A DNA stretch of 64,000 nt from the NCBI GenBank assembly GCA_018806915.1, contig JAGKQI010000052.1, forward strand, positions 744,001-808,000. Reading direction: 5' to 3'. The position numbers and the translations under genes were made by a program. The notes under the pieces were generated by a model. The model saw only the letters and a program-made list of their open reading frames with translations, did not search any database and was not told where the DNA came from. Each line of letters starts with the position of its first letter. Position 1 is the first letter of the stretch. Positions 7,951 through 45,702 of the stretch are shown here, in pieces. Source of the DNA: Phytophthora colocasiae (lineage: Eukaryota; Oomycota; Peronosporomycetes; Peronosporales; Peronosporaceae).

Positions 7951-8757
7951 CTGGAATGGTTGAGTCACTCGGCGAGTTACAGTCTTCTTATAGGACATGC
8001 GAATCATCTTTGCAGCTATACACGACCAGCAAGGTGAATTAGTAGCCACCGTTTGACTACTAGCAGCCTCCATACCAGTAGCGACTTCATCTCGAACCAT
8101 TCGCTGAATTGCAGGCGAATTTAAGTGACCAAGACGCAAATGCCAGCGTTCTAATGAAGTTGAATCTCTCTTCTTGCGTTGCCGCAGCACCTTCGAGTTA
8201 CTGGGTTGCTGAAGGATTTCACTCTGTTGTCGAACTTCACTTTGCACCGTATACACAGCCACTGCAGTCGCCTTTAAGCGGTACCGACGATTAGTCTTTA
8301 CCAGCAGAAGCTCAGTGCAGTCCTTTCGTAACCAACACACACGCTGAGTATTGATGAAACCATACTTCACGGTCCATCCATTATTCTCCAACATGTCCTG
8401 ACTCAGCAGGTTGTCAGGTGCATTGGGGGAGATCAGCACATTTGTAAACGGAAGGGTCATTTCAGCATGCGGGGATTTGTTGTTCGTCACCCTCAGCGTT
8501 ATGTCACCAACGTATTCATCCTCTCGAGAATTGCCATCATATCCCTGAAAGAAATGCACTTCGTCCTTGCGAATATTGTGCAGCAGAGATCGTTGATTGC
8601 ACACATGCACGTCACTAGCTGAATCAAGTACCCACTCCACTTCAGTACCAGAAGGAGTCTTTACGGATGTAGACGCAACAACAGAAGCACCACGAACACC
8701 ACAACTTAGTCCACTTGTCTTCTTAACTTCACGCTTCTCATCATCTTGTTTTCCCAT
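7946..8757 (-). pseudogene. Copia protease and GAG-pre-integrase fragment (copy C3)
   Basis: An open frame from ATG at 8757 covers the protease (WVLDSAS), the linker and the HHCC zinc-binding region (RWHLRLGH...CWSC). It is cut off at the start of the integrase core by the junction with C2. No frameshift lies within the retained part, unlike C1, so only truncation kills it. Confidence 0.85.
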
Positions 8758-22680: not shown

Positions 22681-23984
22681 ATTCATGACAAGTGCGAGTC
22701 TCTTGCTTCTTTCCTCCTTCGTTCTTTGCTTAGCCTTGTATCGACCTTTGCCTTTCCTTTGCTTGCCTTTACTTTGATTAGAATTCTGCTTCGATTGCTG
22801 CGAGTCATCTTTTGCTTGCTTCCCACATGAGCAAACATGAGCAGGATTTTCTCCCGCTTCAACTGCAACACGTTCATCTAAGGCTGACTCAGCACGCAAT
22901 GCATTCATAACCTGCACAGCCGTAGGGACAGGTCGTACTCCACCACCGTCTCGCACCACGTAATGCTTGGAAAATTGACGTACAACATCACGGTGAGTTT
23001 TCGACACATGTCCGAGCAAAGTCTCCGCGAAGTCCTCATCAGAAATCGCCTTGCCGTAGTGAAGAAGCTGCCGTCGTAAACTCTCCATTTCCCGAAGCCA
23101 CTGATCCATGTTTTTGTCAGTAGTATAGCGGTTGGATACGAACTCGTCTCTAGTGAAGATATAATTCGAGTATTCACGCTTCGTTTGTCTGTCGACGAAG
23201 CGGTTCCACATAGCTTCTGCAGTTCCCTCTTGACAGATCATTTCTGCATCAGCCGGTGGTAAGCCCTGCAAAATGGCTTCGCGAGCAGCATTATCTCGAG
23301 CCTCCAAATCTGCCAGGTCTACAATACCATGGGCATCTATACGATACGAGCCATCCACTACACACCAGCAGCCAAGTCGGGTTAAAAACGCACGAAGCTG
23401 CACGCTGTATAAATCAAAACTTCGCTTCATCACTGGTGGTTTATGCGAAATGTCCAGCTTTAATGAAGCCGACCCAGCTTGTGGTACACCAGAACCGGTT
23501 TGAACTACACGAGATGTTCCAAACCCAGGGAACGATACTCCAGTTGCAGCTTAAGATACTCCAGCACTGCCATACAAACCAGCTCTAGCTCCTCCGATAG
23601 CCGTAGCACTCACGCCAAAAGGACCAGCGAAAGAGGCAGTTATTCCACTTCCACTTCCTAGACCACTACTTGACACTAGCCGAGTACCCGACACTCCCAG
23701 TACACCGGGAAGTCCACATGAAACACCACCAAAAGAACCTCCTAGTAGTCCACTTATGCCACCAGTAACAGAATCTCCACTGCAGGCATGGATCTGGTGA
23801 AACCTCCACCAGATCCTGATTGTTGGGCTAATGTAGCCATAACACTTGTGTTTACAGGTAGCAAACGTGTAGTGTCACCTCCAGAGACTAATTGCTGTAC
23901 ACGTGCCGCTCCACCCGAATCGGTTGTCGTGTCTCCCGTCGCAGGTGGCGGCGTTCCTTGATGTTGTGGTTGGGCTCCACTCAT
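22639..23984 (-). pseudogene. Copia Gag (copy C4)
   Basis: Gag from the family ATG at 23984. Three lesions are visible: the small deletion in the Gly-rich part (near 23790, shared with C2), a TAA stop in the Gly/Ala-rich part (near 23553, from a G-to-A change), and a missing T in a T-run near 22727 that shifts the frame before the zinc knuckle. The capsid-like middle is open (to 23433). The knuckle is in the frame of the following pol ORF. Confidence 0.85.
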
Positions 23985-24025: not shown

Positions 24026-24272
24026 TGTGAAGTAAGCAGGCAGATAGGAGCGAGCAACCGCAGTAGCGGAGAAGACCAAAACACACTTGTTTTCCACGGA
24101 GAAGCTTTGGGATTGAGGGGGAAACCTCGCAGGTGACAACCCCCTCTATAGTTAAGAACACGCAGTATCCTAACTGTCATATGTAAGATAGTCGCTCGAG
24201 AACTGAGACTGGGCACAGGCTTCTTCAACTCTGGAGCTGGAAGCTGACGGAGCTCGACACGTCATCTCCACA
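24026..24272 (-). repeat. Copia 5' LTR of C4
   Basis: 247-bp LTR on the minus strand. Its outer flank is the GB fragment 24273-24383, the same flank as the C2 LTR in mirror image (paired positions sum to 27172). C2 and C4 therefore descend from one insertion that was later duplicated. Confidence 0.95.
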
Positions 24273-24383
24273 AGTGGATCAAAAGTTCCAAGAGACGCTC
24301 CCAGTTCAACTGGAGCTCCGAATTTCCATTTCCACCGTGACCGAGAAAGTTCATGAACCCAACTGGACTGAAGGATTGGTGAG
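24273..24383 (-). mobile_element. GB antisense-ORF fragment (mirror of 2788-2899)
   Basis: Inverted copy of the fragment at 2788-2899, lying between the C4 LTR and the gag start of C5. Both ends have the same junctions as on the left, so LTR plus fragment plus truncated neighbouring gag were duplicated as one block. Confidence 0.85.
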
Positions 24384-27300
24384 ACAAGTGTTATGGCTAC
24401 ATTAGCCCAACAATCAGGATCTGGTGGAGGTTTCACCGGAACTTTGCCTGCGTCTATATCCAGTGGAGATTCTGTTACTGGTGGCATAAGTGGACTACTA
24501 GGAGGTTCTTTTGGCGGTCTTTCACGTGGACTTCCCGGTGTACTGGGAGTGTCGGGTACTGGGCTAGTGTCAAGTAGTGGTCTAGGAAATGGAAGTGGAA
24601 TAACTGCCTCTTTCGCTGGTCCTTTTGGCGTGAGTGCTACGGCTACCAGAGGAGCTAGAGCTGGTTTGTATGGCAGTGCTGGAGTATCTCAAGCTGCAAC
24701 TGGAGTATCGTTCCCTGGGTTTGGAACATCTCGTGTAGTTCAAACCGGTTCTGGTGTACCACAAGCTGGGTCGGCTTCATTAAAGCTGGACATTTCGCAT
24801 AAACCACCAGTGATGAAGCGAAGTTTTGATTTATACAGCGTGCAGCTTCGTGCGTTTTTAACCCGACTTGGCTGCTGGTGTGTAGTGGATGGCTCGTATC
24901 GTATAGATGCCCATGGTATTGTAGACCTGGCAGATTTGGAGGCTCGAGATAATGCTGCTCGCGAAGCCATTTTGCAGGGCTTACCACCGGCTGATGCAGA
25001 AATGATCTGTCAAGAGGGAACTGCAGAAGCTATGTGGAACCGCTTCGTCGACAGACAAACGAAGCGTGAATACTCGAATTATATCTTCACTAGAGACGAG
25101 TTCGTATCCAACCGCTATACTACTGACAAAAACATGGATCAGTGGCTTCGGGAAATGGAGAGTTTACGACGGCAGCTTCTTCACTACGGCAAGGCGATTT
25201 CTGATGAGGACTTCGCGGAGACTTTGCTCGGACATGTGTCGAAAACTCACCGTGATGTTGTACGTCAATTTTCCAAGCATTACGTGGTGCGAGACGGTGG
25301 TGGAGTACGACCTGTCCCTACGGCTGTGCAGGTTATGAATGCATTGCGTGCTGAGTCAGCCTTAGATGAACGTGTTGCAGTTGAAGGGAGCAAATCCTGC
25401 TCATGTTTGCTCATGTGGGAAGCAAGCAAAAGATGACTCGCAGCAATCGAAGCAGAATTCTAATCAAAGTAAAGGCAAGCAAAGGAAAGGCAAAGGTCGA
25501 TACAAGGCTAAGCAAAAGAACGAAGGAGGAAAGAAGCAAGAGACTCGCACTTGTCATGAATGTGGCGAAGTGGGACATATTCGCCCTAATTGCCCTCATT
25601 TGAAGACTGAATCTTCCTCGCCTCGTCCTGCTACCTCGGAGTTCAAGCGATGGGAAAACAAGAAGAGTCGCAATGATGAGAAGCGTGAAGTTAAGAAGAC
25701 AAGTGGACTAAGTTGTGGTGTTCGTGGTGCTTCTGTTGTTGCGTCTACATCCGTCAAGACTCCTTCTGGTACTGAAGTGGAGTGGGTACTTGATTCAGCT
25801 AGTGACGTGCATGTGTGCAACCAACGATCTCTGCTGCACAATATTCGCAAGGACGAAGTGCATTTCTTTCAGGGATATGATGGCAATTCTCGAGAGGATG
25901 AATACGTTGGTGACATAACACTGAGGGTGACGAACAACAAATCCCCGCATGCTGAAATGACCCTTCCGTTTACAAATGTGCTGATCTCCCCCAATGCACC
26001 TGACAACCTGCTGAGTCAGGACATGTTGGAGAATAATGGATGGACCGTGAAGTATGGTTTCATCAATACTCAGCGTGTGTGTTGGTTACGAAAGGACTGC
26101 ACTGAGCTTCTGCTGGTAAAGACTAATCGTCGGTACCGCTTAAAGGCGACTGCAGTGGCTGTGTATACGGTGCAAAGTGAAGTTCGACAACAGAGTGAAA
26201 TCCTTCAGCAACCCAGTAACTCGAAGGTGCTGCGGCAACGCAAGAAGAGATTCAACTTCATTAGAACGCTGGCATTTGCGTCTTGGTCACTTAAATTCGC
26301 CTGCAATTCAGCCAGAATGGTTCCGAGATGAAGTCGCTACTGGTATGGGAGGCTGCTAGTAGTCAAACGGTGGCTACTAATTCACCTTGCTGGTCGTGTA
26401 TAGCTGCAAAGATGATTCGCATGTCCTATAAGAAGACTGTAACTCGCCGAGTGACTCAACCATTCCAGAAGTTGATGAGTGACATGGACTATGTGGATGA
26501 AATCACTTATGATGGATACAAGCATTTCCAGTTAGTTCAGGACGAAGCCAGTCGCTACTTGTGGGGGTTTCTACTGTATCGAAAGGAGAATGCATCAGAT
26601 GCGGTCATGGAGCACTTAAAGTGGGTGCTTGCGCAAGGGAACAACATTGAGGTGTTCAACTCCGATCAAGGCAAGGAGCTCTTCAACAACAAACTGAAGT
26701 TGTTTCTCCGGTCCAATGGTATTGAGTATACGACGACGAATTCGTATAGTCCGGAAGAAAATGGCTTAGTCGAGAGAATGAATGGCGTGGTGCTATCTCG
26801 TGTTCGATGTTTATTGACAGCGGCCAATATGCCGTGGCTACTTTGGGGTGAAGCATTTTATTTTGCACTTGAAGTGATGAACATCAGCGGAAACACTGCA
26901 CTCGGTGGAGAGACTCCGTACTCTCGTAGGTTTGGAGAACGACCAGACTTGACCTCACTGCGGACGTGGGGCTGTATTGTGTTCATCTTCACGCCAAAGG
27001 TATTGCGTTCAAGTAAACTGGAGAATCCGGGTAAGCCGGGACTGTTTGTGGGTACGCAAAGCATTCTGAGAGCTACCGAGTCTTACACCTGATAACTGGA
27101 AACATTGTGGAAGTTCGTTCAGTGGAATTTGAAGAGGACTGGACAGTGGAGTCTTCCTATGTAGCCAAGTTGCTATCCAATCGTTATGGTCGAGGGAGGC
27201 ATGTTTTGCCTACTATCATCCCGTACGTGCGTTTACCAGTCTTAAATCGAGAAGTGCCCGATAAAAAGAGGAATGCTCAAGATGAGATTGATGGTCCATC

Positions 27301-28507
27301 GAAGCGTCAACGCCGTGAAATGTATGCTGGTTTTGGTTGTCGTTCTGGAGAACGAGAAGTGGACCTGCTGCTCTGGTCACGCCGTCAGGTGCGCCTGGTT
27401 GTTGGCCTGAGAGTGAGCTAGGGGTTCCGGCGGATTCTGCTGAGGCAGGAGATCTGTCGAGTGATCTAGAGGTTCCGACGGATTCTGCTGAGGCAGGAGA
27501 TCTGTCGACATCCGAGGATGTACTTCAGCTAGAAGGTGCGCCTTCACAGCGGGAGGTTCAATATCGTGAAGAAGGTGTAGATGGGGTTGTAGACTCGCCT
27601 AACAGCAGTCAATTAGCAGCAACCAGAACACCAACGGATCGAGAATCTTCATCTTCAGTGGGAGACCAGGACAGTGGTAATTTTGCGAGTGTTGAAATTG
27701 AAACGGGTGATATCGAAGACGATGGTGTTAGTTTTGGTGATCCTGCAGAATTATTGGGGCGCATTACGGCTTACGAAGGCTTTATTGATACGGATAGTGA
27801 AGAATACGACGAAGCCGATGGGTGGAGAGACGACGCCACGCGAGCGGCTACATCGTTTCGCCGGTCTTCACGTATTCGACGCCCGAATGTTCGACTACAG
27901 GACTATGAAGTCGAGATTCCTTCAAGCTTAGTCGTACAAGCAGTCAACTTACTCACAGAACCTCAAAGTGTTCAGGAGGCTCTTCAAGCTCCTGATGCTG
28001 AAAAGTGGAAGGAGGCTTTGGAGAAGGAGTACACAGACTTGAAGCGCAACAACACCTGGAAATTGGTGGATCGTCCAAAAGGCAAGAAGGTGTTGACTAG
28101 CAAGTGGATCTTCGTGCGGAAACGGAACCCGAAGGGTGAAGTAATTCGTCATCGTGCACGGATCACTATCAAGGGCCGTCAACAGCGTTACGAGGTGGAT
28201 TTCTGGGAAACCTATGCGCCTGTTGTTTCGCAAGAAGCTGTCAAGTTAGTGTTGTTGCTGGCATTACACTATGACCTAGAGTGTGAACACATTGACTTTG
28301 TTACGGCCTTCTTGAATGGCCCGCTTGGGGAGGATGTTGAAATTTATATGGAGATCCCTGAGTATTTTAACGATGGAAGTGGCCGTGTTTGCGGATTATT
28401 ACGAAGTCTGTATGGATTGAAACAAGCTCCGTTGATCTGGTACGAGCTACTTGATGAACACTTACGATCTTGTGGATTTAAACGTTCGAAGATGGATAAT
28501 GGTGTTT
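24384..28507 (+). pseudogene. Copia copy C5, gag to mid-RT, with many indels
   Basis: Plus-strand copy starting just before the gag ATG at 24393, without leader or LTR. Gag, knuckle, protease, integrase, linker and the first half of RT are all present at high identity to C4. The frame is broken by small indels near 25386, 26250, 26315, 26332, 26347, 27052, 27350 and 27383, mostly in short homopolymers. The 11 nt that keep gag and pol in frame are present. It ends inside RT at the shared bases GGTGTTTAC, before the catalytic box, joined to an inverted gag leader. Confidence 0.88.
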
Positions 28508-28680
28508 ACAGGTAGCAAACGTGTAGTGTCACCTCCAGAGACTAATTGCTGTACACGTGCCGCTCCACCCGAATCGGTTGTCATGTCTCCCGTCGCAGGT
28601 GGCGGCGTTCCTTGATGTTGTGGTTGGGCTCCACTCATTGCAGTCGCGAAAGGCTCCAAACGCAGTTGGGCTCAATAACC
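28508..28680 (-). pseudogene. Copia leader and first codons of Gag (C7, truncated)
   Basis: On the minus strand this is the stretch just downstream of an LTR: primer site (GGTTATTGAGCCC), family ATG at 28638 and about 45 Gag codons. It is cut at GTGTTTAC, where it meets C5 RT on the other strand. Confidence 0.85.
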
Positions 28681-30091: not shown

Positions 30092-30450
30092 GGTTGGACT
30101 CTGGGTACAAATCTGGACTGGTCCGGTTGGACCTGTTCCATCAAACAGCCATCTTCCACTTGGACATCTAAAAGTAACTCCAATATCTCGAAATCAGGTA
30201 ACTGTCAACTGGGCAGAAGGCGGCAGTCCAGGAAATCACTTGACTTGAGTATGTACGTCCGACCGGACATATACCACTTGGAGTCCCAACTGGAGATCTT
30301 GGACTGACTTCGCCTGGGCTCTCCGGAATCCACATTCATTTTGTCCATTCAATTCTCCTTGGCTCGCAGCGTCCCAATATAATACTTTCAGAGCCAATCA
30401 GAGCGTAGCTGGGGTATTTACTCCGTAAAAACTGGAGCCACATCTTCACA
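30092..30450 (-). repeat. 5' part (359 bp) of the GB 3' LTR
   Basis: Minus-strand LTR start, TGTGAAG at 30450, running to the middle of the second 33-bp repeat at 30092. It matches the same part of the 5' LTR (45344-45702) almost perfectly. The rest of this LTR is at 10080-11266. Confidence 0.93.
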
Positions 30451-30811
30451 ACCGTCCCTCTCGTCATGTGCTCTCATTGAGAAATTTACTCTCGAGGTGA
30501 AAGGACACGATGAGACGAAGTGGGGCGACATCATCTTGGGCATCCAAAACTCCCAGTCGGTTCAAACCTTCAGGTCGGTTCGGTCGGAATGTTCAGTCCA
30601 AAACGGTCGATCAGTCCGGAGGGAGCTTTGTGTCCACGAAAATTCAGTACAACAGAAGATCTCCTTTCTCAGCAAACTCCAACTCCGTTCTTCAACTGGC
30701 GGAGGTCGCTTCCTTTCTGCGCCCCGTCCCAAGTCACCCAATCACGACTCAAATCAAATCCAAACGGCAGTTCGCCAATCATAACCCAAATTCGAACTCT
30801 TGAACGCATCG
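30451..30811. other. GB: polypurine tract and leader of the antisense ORF
   Basis: On the minus strand the bases next to the LTR are purine-rich (GAGAGGGACGGT), a weak polypurine tract. On the plus strand this would be the 5' leader of the antisense ORF. A small open frame starting with ATG at 30510 is possible within it, but I see no conserved protein. Confidence 0.5.
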
Positions 30812-33596
30812 ATGGCAACCCCAAGCAGCGCCTCGGCGTCCGACGCACCTGCGACAGGCGCCTCGCCTTCACGCGCATCTTCCGATGCTCCTGCAGCGAC
30901 TGGCGCCAACGACAGTGGTGGCGGCACGGAAGTGTCTGCCGGAGCGGCTCCCGGCGGTTCCACGGCTGAGGATGACTTCAGGGAGGAGGACGACGGCAGC
31001 GGCCACGTGTCGGAGACTCCTGCACCTCCTTTCCCAGACACGGCGAAGGTACCTGGCTCGCTCGTGACCATCAGAGAGGCCTCCAGCGTCGGATTGTTCA
31101 AGCGCAAGGCTGTGTCCACTCTCACGTTGGGGCCCGGTCATTACACTTTGGAGGACATGAGCTCCGACGAGCGCGTCCGTATCGCTGGAGTCCCATTGGC
31201 AGATCGCCACTTGGAGCCTGGTGTCTTCGTCCAAGATGGGTATGGTGGTCTGGAGGGCATGGTCCAGCTGGAGAGTCTGTCAACTGCAGAGAAGTCCGAG
31301 TTGTTCCAGTTCTTCGATGATAAAGTGAACTTGGACTATCGCGTGCTGGTGCCCCGAGGTCGTCCTCTGGATGGGGATGCCCTGGATTCCGAAATGAACA
31401 ACCTGCTGGTCCGACGGGAATTTGCGTCTATCCTGACGCAGTTCGAACCCGAAGGTCTCGCGCGTCGCGTGTTCGGGACGGTCTCTCTCCTTCGTCGCGT
31501 CATCCAGAAGCTCTCCCGGGACCAGACACTGCTCGAAGATACAGACGCGGCGGTGACGGATGCACTGGCTGTCCAAGATTCCTTGGACAACTTGAAACGT
31601 GGGTCTCAGCTGAAAATTCAAGCCCTCGAGCGGCTTGTATCGATGTCGGCAGCCGAGAAGGAGGAACTCGTGCAGAACTTCCGAGCTGACACTTTACAGC
31701 TCATCCAAGAACACAAGCGCGACAAGCAAAGTCTCCAGCGTCAGGTTCGAGATCTGCAACAGCAACTAGCCGCCGCCAAGTCTCGTCAATCCTTCAGTCC
31801 AGTTGGACTCATGAACTTTCTCGGTCACGGTGGAGATGGAAATTCGGAACTCCAGTTGAACTGGGAGCGTCTCTTGGAACTTTTGATTCACTTTCGCGAT
31901 GGGGTCCCAGTGCCGTCGTCCTGGCGTACCATGATTACTGTGATGACTCCAGATGACACTCGGCACACGTTCCCGCCATTCACGCAACTTCCTTGTTCGG
32001 AAGACGGTGATGAATCCAAGGAAAGCGATCCTCCGGCCGGCGACGAGATCGACCTGACGAAGGATTCGTCCAAGTCTTCCGGTTCGTCGTCTTCCAAGAA
32101 GCGATCTAGACCTCCAGCCGGACCTTCAAGCTCCAAGCGCCGCAAGAAGTCTCGAAAGGCTCCAGAGGAGGCTCAGGGGCGACCCGAGGGGTGGATTGCT
32201 CACTCTAACGAAGACTGTCTCTCCGACAAGTACCCGTTGTCTTGGACTGTGGAGAAGGCTCGGAAGTCTCTGGCAGATCACCCGGTTGCTTGGGAGGATC
32301 TCCGTTTGGACGTCCAGATGCTGATTCGCACGGGCGTCCCGTTTCCAACTGTGATCGAGTGGCTGAACGATGATCGTGCGGCTCACTTTGGCTTCCAGTT
32401 GGATGTTCTCCTCTCGATGCTTGTCCGAATGATGTACTGGAACGCATTGGACGACGTCCACTGGACAAAGTATGTCCCTCGCCGCTACTTCAGTATGGCC
32501 GATGCCATTCTGGCTAACCTCGTGGAGCAAGATGTTCAGCCGGAGTTCTGGGGTCCAATGGTGGAAGGCGAGTCTGGAATTGAAGAAGATCCCGATCCTG
32601 ACGCTCTGGTCGAAGACAAGGATGACAAGTCCAAGGACGAGGACTTCCACCCGGACGACGACGGAAATGCCGAAGAAGAAGAAGAGGAGGAAGATATCAA
32701 GACTCCTCCTCCACGTTCTGCACGCCGTCGTCTGAGCTCCAGCAGTACACCTGCCACGCCGAAATCTTCCAAAAAGTCTCGTCGGACGAAGTCTGCCCGG
32801 ACGGCTCTCGCTCGGAAGGACTACGAAGACCTTACCCATTCGGAGAAAGAAGTGATCGAGAGCCCGGACGACGAGAACAAGTCGTGGCTGCACTACGGAG
32901 TCCGGGTGAAGCGTGGGGACCCTATGTATGGGGTGTCGCTTCAGACGTTTGGATTCCCGGACTACGCACCCAACCGTTGGGACATCAAGATCTTGAAGTC
33001 CCGTTCGACAACCAAGTTCTCAGAGATCCAGCAGCTCATGGCGGACGCACCTTGGAGTGAGATGTTTTCCAACCGGACCCAAACGTTCTTCTTTCACAAG
33101 CGCGATGACCTCTCGGATGACACGGTGGAAGCGTTGGGTCGGTGGATCAAGTTCGTCTCACGGAATGTCCGGTCGTTCTGGAACGCTGGTCACTGGTTGA
33201 CATTGGATGGTTCGGCCGATGCTCCCGCTCTCGTACGTCAGATGCAGAATGATCGGTCGAACCACCAAGCGTCCTTCCGGAAGCGCGTTCTCGCACTCCA
33301 AACGGAGCTGGATCCCGACATCCCGGACTCACTTTGGATGGAGCTGGCATCTGGGTGTACCCGCACAAGCTGTGCCACTGGATTCTCATGGATCCAAAGC
33401 ACGTCAACCCGGACACTCGGCGCCGTATACTGTCCAAGAGCAGTTGAAGATCTTGGACAAGCGTGAACCTGGACGAGCCCAATGGAGCCATTCCAAGTCG
33501 GACAAGGAGCGCATTGCGCACCTCCCACCAGACGTTCGTGCCAAGTTGATTCCGGCCGGACAACGCGTGAAGTTCTCTGACCTGTGGGCACTATGA
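30812..33596 (+). pseudogene. Antisense extra ORF of gypsy GB, unknown function
   Basis: A frame of about 880 codons from ATG at 30812 to 33466. Coding-like sequence continues in other frames to 33596, so two small indels (about 33350 and 33430) probably cut a protein of about 930 residues. The N-terminus is low-complexity Ala/Ser/Gly. A compact segment (about 100-220) and a coiled coil (about 260-320, LQRQVRDLQQQLAAAK) follow. Next come a Ser/Lys/Arg-rich, nuclear-signal-like stretch (about 420-455) and a second globular part (about 465-590). An acidic run (EEEEEEED) and a third globular part rich in Trp and Phe complete it. No named domain was recognised. It lies between integrase and the 3' LTR on the strand opposite gag-pol, as antisense ORFs do in some plant Tat-type elements. 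A captured gene or a structural protein are possible. Confidence 0.7.
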
Positions 33597-33893: not shown

Positions 33894-35300
33894 CTAAGCC
33901 CGGGATGATCGTCCCCTGCCTGCATCGCTTGGAATCTCGCCCGCGCTCTTTGCTCCTTGATTGAACTCATAGAGCAGGGCACCGCAGCTGAGTTGCGACA
34001 CAGGTAGCCATTCTGGTTCTGTCGTAACCTTTCCACTTGACCTGATACTCTCGGACCCTTTTTGAAGTTCGGGTCTGCTTGGACCATCGGAGATCCAAGA
34101 TCTTTTCGACCTCATACTCGTTGTTTCCGACATCCGGTTCCCAACTGTCTTCGGGAAGCAAGGCAGCGTCGAAATCATCGTCATCGTCCGGTTGAACTTC
34201 CACGGTTGGACGTTTCGGAAAGATGGCTCGTGGCTTCAGGCGACTAATGTGGACCCAAGGGTTGACACGATAACCCGTGTCCTCAACCTTGAGCTTCACT
34301 CGGAAGTCATCGTGCACCTCTTCAATCCGGAAAGGTCCATGCCACATGTGAGCCAATTTTCGACTAAGTCCCGTTTGAACCTTCGGAATGTACAGCCAGA
34401 CTGAATCTCCCTTTTCGAACCCGGACTTCAACCGGTCGGACAGTTCCTTCCACTTTTGCGTTTGGACCTCCGACCGGTGCCTCTTGGCCTTCTTTTGGAG
34501 ATCTTCAGCGAACGCAACAGCGTAACTGTAGTCACGTTGCACACTACGTCTCCACTCATAGGCTGTGCGCTCCGGGAGGCTATTGGCCTTTGGACCCAAC
34601 ATTGCCGAAATCGTACTCCGGGCGCCCCAGCCGTGCACCAAGTAAAAGGGAGTCTCCAACCGGGTGGCATCGAACGAAGTGTTCAAAGCGAACATCAACC
34701 GTTCAACATGGTCGTCCCAGTCGGACTGATCCGCTTCCATGATATAACCTCGGGTACTTCGGATGACCGTTTGGACTGACCGTTCTTGTTGACCGTTCGC
34801 CTGAGGGCGATATCCCAAAGTAGCCCGTTGGAGACTTCCAGCAGATTTCGGAAACATCCGAACACCGCACTCATGAACCTTGGATCTTGGTCATGTCGGA
34901 TCATCGAACTGGCACCAAACTTTTGGAAGACCACTTGCTCGTAGACTTCAGCAACATCTTGGGCAGTCGTTGAACTCATTGGTTTGCACATGACATATCC
35001 GGAGAACATATCTTGGAACAATAATAAGAACGTATTCCCACGAGCCGACTTCGGAAGATGAGTGACGAAATCCATCGACACCACTTGGAATGGATATGCC
35101 GGTTCGATGTTTCCAGGCGACGGTCCTCCATTTGGAGGCCGTCCCTTTCCACTGGCACAATCCACACACTCCTTCACATGCCGTTCAACATCCGCATACA
35201 TTCCAGGCCAGTAGAACTCCAAGAGTAACTTTTCGTGAGTCCGACGGATACCTTGGTGACCACCTTGGAAATCCTCATGGGCATACCGGAGTGACTCTGG
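33894..35300 (-). pseudogene. GB integrase with GPY/F and chromodomain
   Basis: The HHCC zinc-binding region (GGHQGIRRTHEKLL...CVDCASG) is near 35180-35280. The catalytic core has D in SMDFVTHL (about 35070), D in RHDQDPRFMS and E in PQANGQQERS (about 34790). A GPY/F motif (WHGPFRIEEV) lies near 34340, and a chromodomain (EYEVEKILDLR, YQVKWKGY) near 34030-34110. Frameshifts break it at about 34855, between the second D and E, and inside the chromodomain at about 34010. The family function is insertion of element DNA, with the chromodomain biasing it to marked chromatin. It is inactive as it stands, but all key residues remain. Confidence 0.85.
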
Positions 35301-35921
35301 AACAACCAACCTCAAATCACCCAAAAAATCGCGTGGACGCTTCTGGGTGACAGTAGTCATCCGGTACAGCACATCTCGACTGTCCAACGTGAACAGGTCT
35401 GCGACCTTGGCAATCTTTCGGAGTCTCCGGGGGGAGAACCGTTGGAACTCTCCTTTCAGAAATGACTTCAGCTCAGACAAGTACTTGTCAGCGTCTTGGT
35501 GGACCTTGATCCTCCGCCATCGCTCTGCCTGGAACTCCAGTGGCCCCATTGGAGGTCCATCTGGGCGTCCAACCGGTTCATCATCATTCTGAGCTATTGC
35601 AGCCATGACTCGAGCGGCGAACGTCAGGGGGGCAGATTCTGATCCAGTGAGATTTTCTCCAAGCCGAGGATTGTCATCTGAACTTCCACCAACTTGGATG
35701 TCGTCCGCTGGCCCCTGGGCACTCATGCGCACAGAACTTGAAGGCTGATCATCTGGCGGTTCATCTTTCAGAGTATGACCATCCGGAGGTTCAACTGGTC
35801 CGTTGTCTTTTGGAGTGATCTTGACTTCCGGAACCTTAGGCTTCATCAACTTTTCCGGAATCTTGGATACGTACTCCAAATGACGTAGGTCACTTTCATC
35901 CTCGACATCCCATGACGCTCC

Positions 35922-36311
35922 CAAGAGTAAAGTCTTGGAAGTAAGATAGTCGGCGGCCTGGTTGTAGTCTCGCTTGAGATGCACCAATCGGACCCTCTGG
36001 AACTTTGCCTTCAAAACCTCCGCCTCCGCAAGGTGTTTTTGGAGGTGCGGTTGATTGCAGTTGATCAGACCCTGAACTTGTTGAATCACGATCCGAGAAT
36101 CTCCAACGATAACTAGCTCTTGGACCTTCCGATCGGACGCCATCAGCATACCTTTCAGAAGGCCGTGGTACTCGGCATCGTTCACGGTGACATCTTCCAA
36201 GATGAAACCTCGAGCCTCGAGGATAGTCCAACCGGGTAACTTCCAGAGGATGCATCCACAACTGCCCTTCCGGTTGGAGGTCTTGGCAGCTCCGTCGAAA
36301 CTCAGAACGAC
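35922..36311 (-). CDS. GB second, archaeal-type RNase H (aRNH)
   Basis: Uninterrupted domain of about 130 residues within the 34695-36587 frame. All four metal ligands of type I RNase H are visible in order: D in SFDGAA, E in NDAEYHGLL, D in VGDSRIVIQQ and D in NQAADYL. The FDGA...AEY...GDS...AD pattern is that of archaeal/plant-type RNase HI rather than the retroviral-type domain that precedes it. Such a second RNase H is known from plant Tat elements and from oomycete gypsy elements (Chronos/Archon groups). It probably degrades the RNA strand in place of the upstream domain, whose frame is broken here. A Pro/Asp-rich spacer (about 35300-35900) links it to integrase. Confidence 0.82.
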
Positions 36312-36399
36312 GCCTTCGTAGTCGGACTCCAACATCTCGATACTCATCACTGGTGGTTTCCGGATGCGTCCCTTCAGTGGAATCAACGACTCCGAGATT

Positions 36400-38826
36400 T
36401 CGTCCAAGTGTTCACGAGGAGTGATTCCGGCGCCCATAATGGCCGCTAAACCATCTTCATCCCGTTGGACCTTCCGAATGTCCAAATTCCAGTGGGACAG
36501 TGTGAGTCCCCAGGGTACACACCGTCCATCTGCCGACTTGGAATTGATAACCCACTTCAAGACGGAGTACCGTGTGTACACGATCAACTTGGACTGTTCA
36601 ACCAGCGTCCGGAAAACTTGGAGTACTCTCAGTATTGCGATGACCTCCTTTTCCGCAATGTGATATCGCAGTTCAGAGTCGTTTAGAACGCGACCGGTAT
36701 ATCTGACCGGGATGGATTACACCATCATACTCCTGGCCCAAGACAGCGCAAGCCGCCCAAGCATTTGCATGTGGGATGATCACGAACGGTCGAGTCCGGT
36801 CGGGGTGTCGAAGCAGTGGAGTCGAAACGATCTTGTGCTTCAGAAGTCCGAACGCTTCCTTGGCCTGATCCAAGTTCCGGCCGGACTTGATCTGCTCATC
36901 AGTTAACTCATACAACACTGCGGCGACCACCGGAAAATCTTCGATGAACTTGTGGTAATAGTTCAAACTTCCAAGGAACGATTGGACCCCTTTCAGAGTG
37001 TTCGGAAATGGTAGGTCCAAAACGCCCTTCGCGATTTTTGGAGTCGCTCTGATACCCTCCGCACTGATCTCGTGGGACAAGTACGGGATGGTCAGTTTTC
37101 CAAACTCGCTCTTCGGAAGGCTCACCGAGATGTTCCAATATCGGAGTCGAAACAGAAGTGCGTTCAAGTTCTTCGCATAGCTGATCCCATGTTGGAGCAC
37201 CATGAGCAATGTCGTCGATATACGAACTTCGACCTAACACCGGGCTCATCTGTGACGGAGCAGGGATGTTCCGTTGGAAGACTGTCATGGTGTCCGACAG
37301 GTTCGGCACTTGAACCCCAACGGGTTGATCGTCCAAAAGTGAATGCTCCGGTCGGTCCAATCCCCAGAAATTCCATAACCTCCGGTTGAACTTCAGCTTC
37401 TTCCTCTGGCGGAGTCGGACAAAACCCCACAGACAATTAAGTTGATAACCGCCTGGTAGACTAGTGGAGCATTCTTCAGTCCAAATGGCATTCTCACCCA
37501 TTGGAAGTGTCCAAACGGACATACGAAAGCCGAGATCAGTTTCGCCCTCTCGGACATCCGGATGGCCCAGAATCCACTGGCCATGTCAAGACTCATAAAC
37601 CACATCGCACTTTCGAATCCAATCAGCAAATCGTCGATCAGAGGTAGCGGGTAGTTCGACAGTAAGATGAACCCATTCACGACCCGGTAGTCAATGCACA
37701 TCCGGATGTCGATCCCATTCTTCTTCAGAACAATGACGATCGGAGAGGCCCATGGGCTTTCGGAATGTTCAATCAGACCTGTCTCCAGAAGCTTCTTGAG
37801 CAACTCGTACACCTTGATCGCCAAGTGAGGAGCTATCGATCGGGGTCGTTGAGCGACAGGTTTTGCCGACCCGACGTCCAAGTCGCATATCACACCTCTG
37901 GCTGGAGCAGGAGCCGCATTACCGTCTCCCAAGAAAATACTCCGATGGCGCTTCAGAATTTCCCGAAGTTTACGTTCCTCTTCTGGAGTAGTTTTTCCCG
38001 GTTCACCTACATCGGCCGATTCGATATCACACTTTGGAGTCAGCTCATGTATTTCCGGAAGCATAACCAGCTGCTCACGCAACTGGGACAACATGTCGCT
38101 TCCCTCATGTACATATACAGCTGGCTCCAAGTTCAACTCTTCGGCATTCACGTGCAGGCATCGGACGAACTTGGTCTCTAGCTTCCGGATGGCTCGATTT
38201 ACCACGTCCAACTTGGACTCATCCTCCGACTGGACATCTTCAGATTCGAGTTCTTCAACCAACGTTTCTTCCGGAAAGCATTCTCCGTCAGCATCACTAA
38301 TCGCGTCGAAAAATTCATCATCACTTAAATCTCCAGTTGGATCACCATCTGACCTTTCCAAAATCGTCAATTTTGTCGATCGTTCCACGGGTACACCTTT
38401 ATCATCCATGCTAATCACATCGAAAAAATCCTCATCATCCGAACTTCCAACAGGCTCATCGTTGGTAGGACAATCATCACTGCCTCCATCAGACACTTCA
38501 TCGGGGGTGAATCCAGCATCTTCTGGCTGTTTGGTAACAGAATCTGCAACTTCTGGATGTAACACCTTCTGAACTTCCGACGGTGGAATCTGCAGTTGGA
38601 CCATATGAACCCTGGTACTCCCACGCGGCGACCGTGTCAACAACTTCTTCGGCCATGGGTATTTCGGTCTTTGGACCGACGGCGGCGCAGACTCGACATC
38701 ATTTGAGGTACTTCTCCTGTCGGAGCTGTTCCTGTCTGGAATTCGTATTCTCGTAAATGAGCACTTCCCACTCACGGTACCTCCGAAGTCCGGGCCGAAC
38801 AAATCTTCCGAACGGGTAACACCCAT
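36400..38826 (-). pseudogene. GB reverse transcriptase and first RNase H
   Basis: A frame of 477 codons (37393-38826) holds an acidic linker and the RT fingers and palm: GLIEHSESPWASPIVIV, MCIDYRVVN, SLDMASGFW and MPFGLKNAP. The catalytic box SYIDDIAHG is at about 37210-37225 in the next frame. The thumb (FLGSLNYYHKFI) and the retroviral-type RNase H start (about 36750-36850) follow, with its end (YTRYSVLKWVINSK) in a third frame at 36475-36587. At least three frameshifts (about 37430, 37210 and 36690) separate the parts, so this copy is dead although the YIDD box is intact. Confidence 0.85.
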
Positions 38827-39620
38827 ACTCTACAATCTGAGCCACAGTAGTATTCGTCCCAAGCCAGACATCCTTTCCGAGATATTCACCACTCGGACTG
38901 CAACCGCCCAGGACTTCGCTCCATAGATGAGTTGAGTCACCCAACGGTCACTACGACCAGCCCACACAACTTCGCGCTGTGGGTTACTCTGACCGTAGTT
39001 AATCCGAATGACAGTCTGTTTACCCGGTTGAGGCATATCGTCCCTGACGGTCGAACGTCCAACCGTAGTCCTTTCCTTTGCTGGTCGAATGTCCGACCAG
39101 ACAACATCACGTTTTCTTCATCCGGCAACTGAACCAATCCTTCTCGAACGCACAGTCGTACTCCAGCTGAGTACATGAAGTCCATTCCAAGTAACACGTC
39201 AACACCTTCACCGATGTTCGCCACCCATAATTCCAGAACGTAAACCACGTTCAGTCCAAGGGTGATCTTCACTTCGGTCCGGGCGGTAATCACGGTTGAA
39301 CTCCACCCAATCCGACACCCGGAGCTGCTTCTCAAAGTTCAATTTGAGCTTGAGCCTACGCGCAAGGTCTAAGCTCAACATGCTCACAGAAGCTCCGGAG
39401 TCCAAAAGGATGTCGGTCCGACAATTGTTCACTGCACCATGCACCATCGCAACTCTCTTTGAACTGTCCGAACGGTGTTCTTCCCACCATCCGTAACCTT
39501 CTCCCGGTTTCAGCCTGAACTCCAACGGGGTGTCATCCAGATTGTCTGGATTCCAATCGTCTGAAAGTTCATCTCCGACCGGATCGCCAAAGTCACTACC
39601 AACCGGAGTTCGAGAGTCGT
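38827..39620 (-). pseudogene. GB aspartic protease
   Basis: Retropepsin-like domain with the motif ILLDSGASVSML near 39390-39430, and a second half with GVDVLLGMDFMYSAGV near 39170-39215 in another frame (shift near 39300). A tail rich in charged residues runs to the RT linker. It would cleave the polyprotein. It is broken by at least two frameshifts. Confidence 0.8.
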
Positions 39621-39849
39621 CATCGATAATTGTCGTCATGCATTGATGGTTAACCTGTCGCTTCAACTCTGGTCCAACATACGCTAACACACACAATTCG
39701 GGGGTTTTCTTCAGCCCGGCGCGTTCTGGATCCCCATCCAGCGGGCTTATTGGTTTGACGGCTGTTCCCCTGAATTGTCCTCCGGATCCAAAAGTTGGTT
39801 CCGGATGGCAGTCGGTATGTCTAGCGCACCTTGTCGGATCAGGTTCTTG

Positions 39850-40030
39850 ATATCTTGGAACGCCTTGAACTCTCCACACGGTCCTTCATGATACTTGTTG
39901 CAGAATTCACACTGTCGAGTCCGGCAGAAGCGGGGCGGATGTCCCTTTCGATGGCATCTTTCACATTCAATGTCCGCCCAGCAATCTTCCTTGACATGTC
40001 CAAAACCCCGGCAATTCTCGCAATATCTCG
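39850..40030 (-). pseudogene. GB Gag nucleocapsid: three zinc knuckles
   Basis: Read in one minus-strand frame: CENCRGFGHVKEDC and CERCHRKGHPPRFC both have C-x2-C-x4-H-x4-C spacing, and a third, shorter CEFCNKYHEGPC follows. The bases belong to the end of gag before protease. The frame differs from that of the capsid ORF upstream, so at least one shift lies between about 40030 and 40300. It binds RNA in the family. Confidence 0.8.
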
Positions 40031-41361: not shown

Positions 41362-44051
41362 AACATCTGTTTTCTGGGAACCGGCTGAAGATGCTCACTG
41401 GGATGCGCCGCTGGATACTTGGTGCAAAGACGTTGGACCAGACGGCTGACGATCTTGAATATCCGGAGTGCGTCCGGACGCCTTTGGCTTCACAAATTCC
41501 TTGGCTGTCGTTGCCCGAAGATCTCGGACTTGCGTAGCTAGGAATTTCTGGACAGCCAAAGATGCCTTCGCGCTCCTTCTTCCGGGTAGCTTCCGATTCT
41601 TCCAGTTCTCGCTGTAGTCTGCGGAGCTCCTTCGACGGCTTGGACTTGGACTTGACGTCCCGAGTGGTGTCCCTCTGGTCCTGTTCGAGTTCCAACAAGG
41701 GGCCATCTGGACGTCCAAAATCCGCTTGGACTTCCGGACGCGCAGTGAACACTCTGGGTCGGCTCCTGCTTCGGGAACAGCTTCTCGAACTTGGAGTCCA
41801 ACAGTCGGTCCAGCTTGCTGTCCAGGTCTCCAGACATCTTCTCGAGTGCAGAACCTGCTGGTCCTCCATCCGCGCCATGACCTTCTGAAGCTGGTACATG
41901 GTGTTCAACGCGACCTGGGTAGATCCGGAACTTGCAGACTTGGAGGACCGCTCGGACCGCACTGATTCAGTTGAGTCTCATGGCGCCGTTCGGACTTTCG
42001 ACTTCCACGTTCTTTGGATTTCGAAGACTTGTCTGCGCGGGCCGCTTCACGTCGTCTCGAATGCTTCTTCTTCGGCTTCTCCGGTTTAGGACTCTTCCAG
42101 ATCGACATCATCTTGTTGGACAACACTTGAGCGTCCACGAGGATTCTCGCGAGTAATCTGGAAAGCCATTCCGGATTCCATGGGCATAGCGCCTCCTGAA
42201 GTCCGAGCGGACATGGCCATCGGAGTGAACCTGGGGAACGGCATATGCGATCCGGCGGATCGACTCATTCCGAACCCTGACGAATCTGACGTGCTCTCCT
42301 GGAAGTCCGCGTCCCTGACGAAGCGCCAGCCATCGACTCACTCTGACCCTCCGGAGGTTCCAAACAAGCTTGACTCTTGAATCGAACTCGTTCGTTCGGA
42401 TGGATTCATCTGATCGGACATGCTCTGTTGAGAAGTCATGCCGCTTCTAGACGACTCAGTCCGGCTGGACCCCAAACTCTGGAATAACGACGATGGTGCC
42501 GATGGGAACGATGATGTAGCGGGCGACGGGATAGACGATGGTGGCGCTCGGGGCATCACTCGCTGGACTCGCTTCGGTTGAACCTCTGGCTGGACGGGTC
42601 CTCTTGGACTGCGTACCTTCCGGAATCCAGCCGACTTCAGCAGCCTCGCGAATTCCCATCCAAACAGCGATACTTCGTAATCCGAAATAAACACACCTTC
42701 ATCTTGGCTGAACACTTCTGGATGTTGTTCGTATAAGCTTTGTCTCCCAGAAGTTGCCAATATCTGGTTGGCCTCTGTCGCTTGGACAACCACTTGCCTC
42801 CATTCGACCAATTCAACCACCAATAGCTGGAGCATGTCTCCGACCACTTGACGGACCAAATCCGGATGCACTTTGTAGACACGCGTCCGGAACCATCCCG
42901 GGACGAGGTTGACAAATCCAAATCCAGCTTCGAAAAGTAATGTCTGAAGAACAGCAATACATTCCCGCGGAGAAAACTCCGAAGGTGGAATCAACGCCGC
43001 TTGGATGTCCTGAGCCATTCCGAACGTTCGACGGTGTATCTGCAACTCGGAGATCCAAGCGTCAGTCTGAGCTGGCATCGACATCCGGCGGTCCAAATAC
43101 TGCGAAGTCATGGACGCCGCCCGAATGAACGGTTCACAGTTCAGCCTGACTTGCGGCCAGTCGAATCGGGCCTCGGGTGATATTCTTCGGAACCATCACG
43201 CTCCCAACGTCGTACTTGATCGGCCACATACGCCTTCGCTTGAACTTCCGTCATCTCGAATTACGACGGTGCCGGTTGAACTCTCGGCTGAACATTCGGA
43301 GGTTCGAACATTTGGGCATCCGGAATGTAAACTCCAGAAGCTTGTTGAGCCGGCGTCCCAGACTGTTCCACAACAGGTGATTCGTCCGGAATCAGTGGTG
43401 GCACTTGGACGTCCGGAGTCATTGGCGAAGTCACGATCGTGTCTTCCAGCGCAATGTCCTCCCGGACCGGTGACAATGGTCGATACTCCTGTTTGACTGA
43501 GGCCAGTCCAACGGGGGCATCAGCATCCAAATGAAAATCTTCCAAGGGAGGAGAATCCGGAACTCGATCCTCCACCTGGACATCTTCAAACGCGTCCTCT
43601 TCATCGGAGTCCTCAGCCTCGTTTTCCACAGCTTCGATCTCCTCCCCTTCGGACACCTCCTGACCGGACTCATCTGAAGGGTCTTCGTCCGGGTCGACAT
43701 CCGATCCAGACTCCTCTTCTCCATCCGGATCCTCCTCGACCCGGACTCCTCCTGCTCAGGATCGCCTTCTCCATCCGAAGCTTCCTCGGAAGCACTTCCG
43801 TCTTGACTCGCGTGGTGCGCGTCCAACTGGTCGGCCTCCGACTGACTTCTTCACGTTCCAGCAATTCCTTTTGCCTCAAGGGCAGCTCTTCCGCTTTCGC
43901 AGCGTTCGCCTGACGATTTCTTCTCACAAATGGTTTCCATATCTTAATGCTCCTCAGGCTGCTGCCCTTTCAACCTTCTCGACGCTCTCGTAGCCATACC
44001 GCTTCCAGACGCGTCGCCTCTTCCTTCGCGTGTAGTTTCACTTCCAGTCAT
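41362..44051 (-). pseudogene. GB Gag N-terminal region, broken into several frames
   Basis: Starts at ATG 44051, about 90 bp after the primer site, with an in-frame TAA after 35 codons. Coding-like pieces then follow in changing frames: a Lys/Arg-rich segment (about 43670-43927), an acidic segment (43261-43656), a 257-codon piece (42338-43111), a Met/Gly/Ser-rich piece (42086-42268), a Lys/Arg-rich piece (about 41990-42080) and a coiled-coil-like piece (about 41750-41960). No domain was recognised before the capsid. The unusually long N-terminal region (about 900 residues if restored) is part of why GB is so large. Confidence 0.65.
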
Positions 44052-44157: not shown

Positions 44158-45702
44158 TGTGGCGAAGTGGGTGAACACTTTTCCCGCCCAGGTGCGTATA
44201 GCGTGTCTTCCGGAAAATAAGTCCGACTGGAAAGATGTCCGGTCGGACTAACGAAAGTCAGAACCTCCAACCGGGATCCAAACGGGTATCCGGAAAGAGG
44301 GTTGGCGTGTGACCTTGTGACTACCCTCGTAGGTGTCGTTTGTCTTCGAACGCGAGGAGTTCCACCTGGATGAGTTACTTCCAAAAGCTTGACTGATCCA
44401 GATGTAGAGTGCTAATGCACTTCCAAATGCAGTGGTTGAGTCTGAATGCAGGTGAGAGACTATTAGCAAAAGCCTTCCAACAACAGATAACCAATATAGA
44501 AGATAGGTAAATGCAAATATACAGCCGCTTCTTATTCTTTGCGGCCCTTGAGCGGTGGGCACTCCAAATGCCAGTACGACGTTGGACACTCCAACCGGAC
44601 ACTGGCACAATCCCGGGGTCCTTAGCGCACCACTTCTGGCAAGTCCACTTGGACTCCCAGAAGACAATTATCCAAGTATATCAGGAATACTATAGAGCAC
44701 TCCAAAATACACACACACAAATACAGTCCAATCACACAGCAGTCAATCAATCAATTTCAGGGGTGACTACTAATAACCTCCTAAAACGCAGTTGTAATAT
44801 GAAATGTACAAACCAAACGACCGTTTGGAATGTCCAACTGGAATATGAAATGGGAGGGGTCACGCCCGGGAATCGCCGCCCGAATCACCTTCCCAACTTG
44901 GTCTTAACCTGGCGGAGATTCACGCGGCGGTGACGATAGTCGACGCGGCCTGACGCTTGTTCGCTGACTCCGAGCCCTCGACTTCGAGGCTGGTCGGCAG
45001 TGCTCACAGTGGTGGCTTATGGGAAACCTCCCGCTCTTCCACTTGCGCCCTTGGTGGCAAATTGAACTCTCTTTAATATATAACTATCCGTTGTAAAGCT
45101 AAACATGCAAAATAGACTTGGTTTCACTATAGGTAGAGGCGTGCTTATCCGGAGTCGACCGGACACATCCGAAGAACACCGAAGAACATGGCCGAATTCC
45201 AGCTGTGCCGAACAGATCATGGTCGGTCGTCTTGGTCGGTCGGAAAACACTTGGGTCTAGTATGGTCGGATCTTCAACGGCCGATCGTGGGTACAAATCA
45301 GGGCTAGTCCGGTTTGACTCTGGGTACAAATCAGGGCTAGTCCGGTTGGACTCTGGGTACAAATCTGGACTGGTCCGGTTGGACCTGTTCCATCAAACAG
45401 CCATCTTCCACTTGGACATCCAAAAGTAACTCCAATATCTCGAAATCAGGTAACTGTCAACTGGGCAGAAGGCGGCAGTCCAGGAAATCACTTGACTTGA
45501 GTATGTACGTCCGACCGGACATATACCACTTGGAGTCCCAACTGGAGATCTTGGACTGACTTCGCCTGGGCTCTCCGGAATCCACATTCATTTTGTCCAT
45601 TCAATTCTCCTTGGCTCGCAGCGTCCCAATATAATACTTTCAGAGCCAATCAGAGCGTAGCTGGGGTATTTACTCCGTAAAAACTGGAGCCACATCTTCA
45701 CA
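44158..45702 (-). repeat. GB gypsy 5' LTR, complete
   Basis: 1545 bp, TGTGAAG (45702) to CGCCACA (44158) on the minus strand. It contains a CCAAT-like TGATTGGCT near the start, three 33-bp tandem units at 45289-45387, and a TATA-like run at about 45074-45083. It is followed on the right by TAAT (45703-45706), half of the 4-bp target duplication, and is almost identical to the two parts of the split 3' LTR, which indicates a recent insertion. Confidence 0.95.
45289..45387 (-). repeat. Three 33-bp tandem repeats in the GB LTR
   Basis: Units start GGGTACAAATC at 45289, 45322 and 45355; the third is the most diverged. In the 3' LTR the break between 10080 and 30092 falls inside the second unit. 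Confidence 0.9.

What the first reader, a model, noticed from the sequence alone, without database searches (positions are those of the whole stretch)
30812..33596. Large antisense ORF between integrase and 3' LTR of gypsy element GB
An ORF of about 880-930 codons lies on the strand opposite gag-pol, inside the element, with coiled coil, nuclear-signal-like and Trp-rich globular parts and no domain I recognise. Seen directly: position between pol and LTR, opposite strand, coding-like sequence across two small indels. Known: some plant Tat-type elements carry antisense ORFs at this place. Inference: an oomycete gypsy lineage has an accessory gene under its own promoter, perhaps for particle, nuclear or silencing functions.
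Basis: partly seen in the sequence, partly recalled or inferred. Interest (0 to 1): 0.82.

Follow-up and report, generated by a model that had tools for sequence, protein, structure and literature searches.

The report
Antisense gene inside oomycete retrotransposons
A family of mobile DNA elements in this water-mould genome carries a large extra gene that runs backwards against its other genes and is kept by natural selection, much as some plant elements do, although what the protein does is not known.

Summary
The element (LTRs 30092-30450, 45344-45702) is Chronos-like (dual RNase H, integrase, chromodomain). The ORF opposite gag-pol is a real protein gene, found between integrase and 3' LTR in six families (A-F) of one oomycete genome, with about 27-57% amino-acid identity in the pairs measured. 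dN/dS is 0.29 within family A and 0.17 between C and D. In most family A-C copies the frame starts at a conserved ATG (30510 here), not 30812. It sits 34-35 nt behind an oomycete INR/FPR-like block, next to the polypurine tract and LTR, in families A-D. The window copy is broken by short indels.

The protein has a probable coiled coil, basic clusters, an acidic tract, Trp-rich conserved blocks and a position-fixed (I/V/L)DL(T/S) motif resembling a SUMO-interacting core; no convincing Pfam or PDB relative was found. It is less conserved than Gag and integrase. Copies with truncated ORFs have spread, so it may act in trans.

Best reading: a trans-acting, probably nuclear, accessory/regulatory protein. 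Antisense ORFs here are known in plant Retand/Grande and fungal Boty elements; this is a different protein family, unmentioned in the main text of two Chronos papers. Expression and function are untested.

The parts
30092..30450 (-). 3' LTR of the element (element sense is the - strand)
   Evidence: 99.7% to 45344-45702, 1 mismatch in 359
45344..45702 (-). 5' LTR
   Evidence: no target-site duplication visible in the flanks printed; flanks match Copia pieces
30394..30398 (+). CCAAT box in the LTR, 80 nt before the INR-like block (a second one at 30374)
   Evidence: one copy per family looked at: CCAAT at -100/-80 in A, -117/-97 in C, -98 in D (ATTGG at -80), -85 in E and F; none within 200 nt in B
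30451..30465 (-). polypurine-tract-like stretch next to the 3' LTR
   Evidence: sequence nearly identical in families A-D; assignment by position and composition
30474..30489 (+). INR+FPR-like 16-nt core-promoter block TCATTGAGAAATTTAC
   Evidence: definition from PMC3599244 passages. FPR fits; INR fits 5 of 7 positions
30510..30811 (+). conserved start ATGAGACGAAG and N-terminal extension; frame broken in the window copy
   Evidence: 32 of 34 loci of families A-D carry the ATG motif; continuous with the main frame in the A, B and C copies shown except L002, which lacks the ATG motif; not continuous in the D copies shown
31451..31830 (+). conserved RVFGTVS block followed by probable coiled coil
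   Evidence: weak hits to coiled-coil families; heptad-power test exceeds all 300 shuffles only in family D of 6
32045..32065 (+). EIDLTKD: SUMO-interacting-like motif in a linker
   Evidence: [ILV]DL[ST] at linker position 30 or 31 in 6 of 6 families
32096..32158 (+). basic cluster resembling a bipartite nuclear signal
   Evidence: assignment by eye, no predictor run
32189..32566 (+). conserved Trp-containing, probably helical block
   Evidence: invariant columns; single-sequence AlphaFold all-helical but mean pLDDT 53.9
32585..32701 (+). acidic tract
32714..32800 (+). second basic cluster
32807..33596 (+). C-terminal conserved Trp-rich block
   Evidence: single-sequence model of 32729-33343 poor, mean pLDDT 40.5
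33967..34857 (-). integrase C-terminus and chromodomain, convergent with the antisense ORF
   Evidence: PF00385 24.7 bits against cut-off 25.1
34695..36587 (-). second RNase H (RVT_3, taken as the archaeal-type one), H2C2 and integrase core
   Evidence: best relatives are Phytophthora/Pythium pol proteins
36673..37209 (-). native RNase H fragment (RT_RNaseH_2)
37393..38826 (-). reverse transcriptase
39208..39879 (-). aspartic protease
42341..43195 (-). probable Gag part (no Pfam match; by position)

Best explanation
The ORF is an accessory protein gene of Chronos-like retrotransposons. Shown from sequence: it is protein-coding, under purifying selection, at one place and strand in six families, with a conserved start next to the 3' LTR. 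Supported but not shown: it has its own oomycete-type core promoter (CCAAT in the LTR, INR/FPR-like block between polypurine tract and ATG), giving a separate antisense mRNA as maize Grande gene23 does. Inferred: the product is a nuclear, self-associating protein (coiled coil, basic clusters, acidic tract, SUMO-interacting-like motif) that acts in trans on the element's own chromatin, transcripts or pre-integration complex, most likely to keep the element expressed or integrating against host silencing. Its fast divergence would fit contact with changing host factors.
For: Coding: between families codon position 3 differs most and 2 least (p3 0.56-0.66, p1 0.34-0.45, p2 0.26-0.38, 6 of 6 pairs of A-D, one copy each); C-D dN/dS 0.17, the other 5 pairs saturated at dS. 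Within family A mean dN 0.0138, dS 0.0477, ratio 0.29 over 91 pairs. Nonsynonymous:synonymous 91:87 for singletons and 47:45 for shared changes against 117:54 and 61:28 expected (p 2e-6 and 7e-4). Integrase-chromodomain of the same family: 0.21 (78 pairs). Place: 14 of 14 divergent loci L037-L050 have integrase-chromodomain convergent on the other strand; 10 of 11 family-F places with an integrase neighbour in the capped list are convergent at 470-474 nt. Abundance: family F has 41 scored matches of 1788 candidates, 16 matching query 1-1118 without a stop. Promoter: 16-nt block with its A 34-35 nt before the conserved ATG in A-D; strict pattern 2 in window against 0.08 expected. Trans action: derivatives with truncated ORF recur (3 family-A places with the same central deletion; L051 and L052 beside pol frames of 1937 and 1957 codons). 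Rate: A-B identity 48% here and 91% for integrase-chromodomain, 68-71% in the next Gag group. Motif: with the SIM core (I/V)DLT in PMC4907222 (passages).
Against: No transcript, protein, localisation or phenotype data. The INR match is imperfect, some copies vary in it (L003, L006, L017), B has no CCAAT, and E and F keep only a degenerate block (TCAGTGCGGAACTTTC). The block could instead serve reverse-transcription priming. By a recalled stricter SIM pattern C and D do not qualify. Coiled coil rests on weak hits; the heptad-power test is significant in 1 of 6 families. No fold obtained. Spreading of copies with a truncated ORF could also mean the gene is dispensable. Fast evolution may simply reflect disorder. 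One family-F copy lies on the same strand as the neighbouring integrase. Nothing was seen in any other oomycete.
Confidence: 0.5

Rival explanations
1. The protein is a structural or assembly component of the particle (extra Gag-like or scaffold protein), made from its own RNA and packaged.
For: Coiled-coil part with weak hits to scaffold and filament-forming proteins; charged, Trp-rich blocks.
Against: Basic clusters and a SIM-like motif suit the nucleus; truncated copies still spread; no fold evidence either way.
Confidence: 0.15
2. The antisense RNA, not the protein, is the working product: convergent transcription over the pol 3' end makes double-stranded RNA that limits copy number.
For: Tail-to-tail arrangement with integrase, at constant distance in family F; such a role is discussed for plant antisense ORFs (PMC7264820, passages).
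Against: Codon-level constraint and full-length protein conservation need translation; an RNA role could exist in addition.
Confidence: 0.12
3. The protein is a self-restriction factor, as a truncated Gag is in yeast Ty1 (recalled), so copies that lose it spread better.
For: Deletion derivatives recur, L051 and L052 beside long pol frames.
Against: Full-length frames are common in family F (16 of 41 scored matches full length without stop), odd for a burden on the element.
Confidence: 0.1
4. A host gene captured by chance and carried as a passenger.
For: No convincing Pfam or PDB relative, as for a captured orphan gene.
Against: Present in six families with identity down to about 27%, under purifying selection, and no host-only copy among the places examined.
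Confidence: 0.04
5. An Env-like protein.
For: Location between pol and 3' LTR.
Against: Opposite strand; no hydrophobic segment (maximum Kyte-Doolittle 19-residue mean 0.86-1.46 in one copy of each of 6 families).
Confidence: 0.01

Closest known systems
Antisense ORFs of plant Retand/Grande/RIRE2 elements (TRP28 proteins; Tat lineage by recall)
   Same: Large ORF opposite gag-pol between pol and 3' LTR; Grande gene23 has its own promoter and a nuclear product (PMC7264820, PMC11963269 passages). Tat, like Chronos, has a second archaeal-type RNase H (PMC10508981 passages).
   Different: No TRP28 (PF04195) match listed for 11 proteins scanned with E up to 1; other host kingdom; Chronos is only distantly related to Tat (PMC5348765 section 5).
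Chronos LTR retrotransposons of oomycetes
   Same: Gypsy order, native RNase H plus a second one, integrase followed by chromodomain.
   Different: Two papers that treat the group do not mention an antisense ORF: word 'antisense' 0 times in the main text of PMC5348765 and of PMC10508981; supplements not read.
HTLV-1 HBZ
   Same: Antisense gene with a promoter in the 3' LTR, nuclear protein (as described in PMC11963269 and PMC7264820 passages).
   Different: No sequence comparison made; this ORF has about 1030 codons; no bZIP hit in the Pfam tables.
Boty of Botrytis cinerea
   Same: Antisense ORF between pol and 3' LTR outside plants (PMC7264820 passage).
   Different: Not compared by sequence here.

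Membership tests
Chronos (element) | Ty3/Gypsy domain order PR-RT-RNH-IN | tested here: met
Chronos (element) | dual RNase H, native plus archaeal-type | tested here: met
   RT_RNaseH_2 and RVT_3 matches; many Phytophthora relatives carry PF17919, PF17917 and PF13456. That RVT_3 is the archaeal type is inferred; catalytic residues and RNase H phylogeny not checked
Chronos (element) | chromodomain after integrase | tested here: met
   PF00385 E 2.2e-05, 24.7 bits, just under cut-off 25.1; several close relatives annotated PF00385
Chronos (element) | RT phylogeny inside Chronos | not tested
   no labelled Chronos RT sequences at hand
Chronos (element) | host in Peronosporales or Pythiales | tested here: inconclusive
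   genome unnamed; where an organism is named among the best 120 relatives it is Phytophthora or Pythium
Plant Retand-type antisense ORF | antisense ORF between pol and 3' LTR | tested here: met
Plant Retand-type antisense ORF | TRP28 domain (97% of clusters in PMC11963269) | tested here: not met
   no PF04195 match listed, 11 proteins
Plant Retand-type antisense ORF | own promoter (shown for Grande) | tested here: inconclusive
   core-promoter-like block conserved in A-D; no RNA data
Plant Retand-type antisense ORF | nuclear product (shown for Grande) | not testable with these tools
   basic clusters only
Env-like ORF | sense orientation and transmembrane segment | tested here: not met
   opposite strand
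SUMO-interacting protein | (I/V)DLT core with acidic or serine flank | tested here: inconclusive
   IDLT in A, VDLT in B, LDLT in C, E, F, LDLS in D; binding not testable

The most novel reading that the evidence does not exclude
Gypsy elements that acquired a second, archaeal-type RNase H have twice, in plants (Tat) and oomycetes (Chronos), also acquired a large antisense gene starting at the 3' LTR. The oomycete protein is a fast-evolving, trans-acting, SUMO-binding counter-silencing factor, a new accessory-protein family that parallels retroviral antisense regulators.
Probability: 0.2. Interest if true: 0.85.

Novelty: new variant of a known kind. Interest (0 to 1): 0.62.

Why it matters
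If expressed, this gene is missing from the published main-text descriptions of Chronos elements that I saw, and it gives a second, apparently independent case in which dual-RNase-H gypsy elements carry an antisense accessory gene. That makes the open question of what antisense ORFs do in LTR retrotransposons testable outside plants, with a clear candidate promoter, a conserved short motif and natural deletion variants to compare.

Tried and rejected
Protein database: the aORF alone and as alignment A1 gave no hit. This is weaker than it looks: candidates were capped near 8000 and the query has low-complexity stretches that may crowd the word list, while the pol control found many Phytophthora and some Pythium relatives, so the database does hold oomycetes. 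Absence from other oomycetes is not shown.

Viral contigs and prokaryote genomes: no relative. Viral contigs with pol gave 3 weak matches at 27-33% (L058-L060), not used. PDB profiles: weak matches to coiled-coil stretches, to the acidic stretch and a few others, best E 0.0036, taken as compositional.

AlphaFold without alignment: both pieces poor; no fold search was run on them. Loci from the genome search were not handed to the structure tool because its stated rule does not list them.

Considered and rejected: chance ORF opposite another gene (it does not overlap the pol frames; the substitution pattern favours this frame over both shifted ones on its own strand); Env; passenger host gene. 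Open frames of 247-297 codons on the other strand inside it in some copies were not pursued as genes.

Literature: the searches behind 'not described' are (open-licence PMC only) and word look-ups in two papers. Most subscription papers, all supplements and Repbase were not seen.

Full report
What is there. The window holds a Ty3/Gypsy element on the - strand. Its LTRs are 30092-30450 and 45344-45702 and differ at 1 of 359 bases. Its flanks match Copia pieces, and no target-site duplication is visible in the flanks printed. Protease, RT, a native RNase H fragment, a second RNase H (RVT_3), integrase and a chromodomain lie on the - strand. These are the features by which Ustyantsev et al. describe Chronos (PMC5348765: abstract, first of five parts of the text, section 5 and passages seen). 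Where an organism is named among the 120 listed relatives of the RNase H-integrase part, it is Phytophthora or Pythium.

The ORF. On the + strand a frame of 893 codons (30785-33463) lies between integrase and the 3' LTR. In most other family-A copies, and in the B and C copies shown, the frame runs on upstream to an ATG at the place of 30510. The motif ATGAGACGAAG is present in 32 of 34 loci of families A-D; L002 and L014 lack it. Conserved words such as QLA(E/D)VAS(F/L)LRPVP lie upstream of the 30812 ATG in families A-D, with small changes in C. The window copy is broken by short indels on both sides of the main frame. Of 14 full-length family-A copies 6 have an uninterrupted frame above 1000 codons. 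In the three family-D copies shown, frames differ in the N-terminal part.

How widespread. DNA search of the own genome gave 46 matches, 14 of them over the whole query or all but one base. tblastn gave 54 matches with 52 of 790 candidates scored; these merge into 49 places. Of the 49, 27 have an integrase-chromodomain match on the opposite strand within 3 kb beyond the ORF's end in the scored list. Of the 22 others, 13 have it, where the fetched flank was compared directly. One (L007) does not have it within its 1.5-kb flank, and an integrase match of the right strand lies about 17.6 kb on in the same contig, which suggests a nested insertion. The remaining 8 were not looked at. All 14 divergent loci L037-L050 show the convergent arrangement. 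Five further places, chosen because their integrase was found but no ORF was listed, were fetched. Three of them (L053, L054, L055) carry the ORF in two more families, E and F, at 26-40% identity to family A per aligned piece. The other two (L051, L052) carry a truncated family-B ORF. Family F has 41 scored matches of 1788 candidates; 16 match query positions 1-1118 without a stop. Eleven of its places had an integrase neighbour in the list: 10 convergent at 470-474 nt, 1 on the same strand. These lists are capped by the tool, so no total can be given and a missing neighbour means little.

Selection. Between one copy each of A, B, C and D, all 6 pairs show most change at codon position 3 and least at position 2; dS is saturated in 5 pairs and dN/dS is 0.17 for C-D. 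Within family A, 91 pairs of 14 copies give mean dN/dS 0.29. The ratio of nonsynonymous to synonymous changes is about half of the neutral expectation for both singletons and shared changes. Codons touched by gaps were left out, and broken copies were included. The integrase-chromodomain part gives 0.21 (78 pairs). Between A and B the antisense protein is 48% identical and integrase-chromodomain 91%; the next Gag group after family A has 68-71%. Against E and F the values are about 27% for the ORF, 77-80% for the large lower integrase groups and 34-36% for the lower Gag group; the assignment of those integrase and Gag rows to E/F is mostly by identity. So this is the least conserved of the three proteins compared.

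Start site. In families A-D the LTR end, the polypurine-tract-like stretch, a 16-nt block TCATTGAGnnATTTrC and the ATG follow each other closely, with 34-35 nt from the block's A to the conserved ATG (one search prints 31 for C because an extra ATG stands directly before it). Single-base variants exist, for example TCAGTGAG in L003 and L017, and L040 lacks one T of the block. In Phytophthora infestans INR is YCAYTYY and FPR is MWTTTNC in a 16-nt block, with start sites 32-144 nt before the start codon (PMC3599244, passages). FPR fits in A, B and D but not C; INR fits at 5 of 7 positions. The pattern TCATTNNNNMWTTTNC occurs twice in the window against 0.08 expected, once here. CCAAT boxes lie 80-117 nt upstream in A, C and D and 85 nt in E and F, none within 200 nt in B (one copy per family); the paper gives a median of 83 nt when both are present. 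E and F keep only a degenerate version of the block, 29 nt before their ATG. A conserved role of this stretch in priming reverse transcription, not in a promoter, cannot be excluded.

The protein. Order of parts: basic N-terminus; variable Ser/Ala/Gly-rich stretch; conserved YGG and RVFGTVS blocks (the latter altered in E and F); probable coiled coil; a linker with (I/V/L)DL(T/S) and a basic cluster; a Trp-containing conserved block with WTKYVPRRY or close variants; an acidic tract; a second basic cluster; a C-terminal Trp-rich block. Of 17 Trp in the window's 871 residues 15 lie after residue 454. The (I/V/L)DL(T/S) word sits at linker position 30 or 31 in all 6 families, with probability 0.003-0.007 in each shuffled linker; the families are related, so these are not independent. 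(I/V)DLT is described as the core of a SUMO-interacting motif preferring SUMO2/3 (PMC4907222, two passages; also PMC3901395, passages). By a recalled stricter pattern C and D would not qualify. Pfam: where cut-offs were printed (and the first member) nothing reached them for this protein; among the 8 members a coiled-coil family, TPR_MLP1_2, reached E 1.4e-4 as the better of 2 members, without a printed cut-off. PDB profiles gave weak matches only, mostly coiled-coil or acidic stretches, and single-sequence AlphaFold models are poor.

Deletion variants. Three family-A places (L016-L018) share one central deletion. L051 and L052, 98% alike over 3.1 kb, keep about 320 N-terminal codons and the last 20 or so, while the pol frames beside them are 1937 and 1957 codons long. 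Three more places with 86% integrase identity and no listed ORF were not fetched. These copies spread without a full ORF, so its product seems dispensable in cis; trans supply by full copies is the simplest reading, but loss of need is not excluded.

Known relatives. [quoted passage not shown] Grande gene23 has its own promoter and a nuclear product (PMC7264820, passages). In Retand 97% of clusters encode TRP28 in such ORFs (PMC11963269, passages). Tat, Chronos and Archon are described as LTR lineages with an added archaeal-type RNase H next to the native one (PMC10508981, passages); that Retand and Grande belong to Tat is recalled. The word antisense is absent from the main text of both papers that treat Chronos. 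I therefore file this as a new variant of a known kind: same place and strand, different protein family, different lineage.

Mechanism. Shown: coding, selection, fixed location, conserved start. Supported: own promoter. Inferred: nuclear, trans-acting regulator or counter-silencing factor. I hold the gene's reality at about 0.95 and the whole statement, function included, near 0.5.

Noticed in passing
24272-24385 and 2787-2900: 114 nt directly after a Copia 5' LTR, ending 8 nt before its ORF's ATG, is 94% (92%) identical to antisense-ORF codons at 31780-31893, in the orientation of the gypsy genomic strand; only these two such places in the capped match list of the genome search. Possibly a template switch between the two elements' RNAs.
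   Followed up: partly
18755-23782 and 24393-28515: Two nearly identical Copia copies (arms 99-100%) in inverted orientation close together.
   Followed up: no
L007; G000 contig C52 about 1676585-1694226: About 17.6 kb separates a family-A antisense ORF from an integrase match of the expected strand, as if another element were nested between them.
   Followed up: no
G000 C52:1537632-1542127: A family-F antisense ORF lies on the same strand as the neighbouring integrase, unlike the 10 other neighbours found; inversion or neighbouring fragments.
   Followed up: no
32126-32893 (-) and family-D loci: Long open frames (247-297 codons) on the pol strand inside the antisense ORF in families A and D; probably a by-product of codon use.
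   Followed up: no
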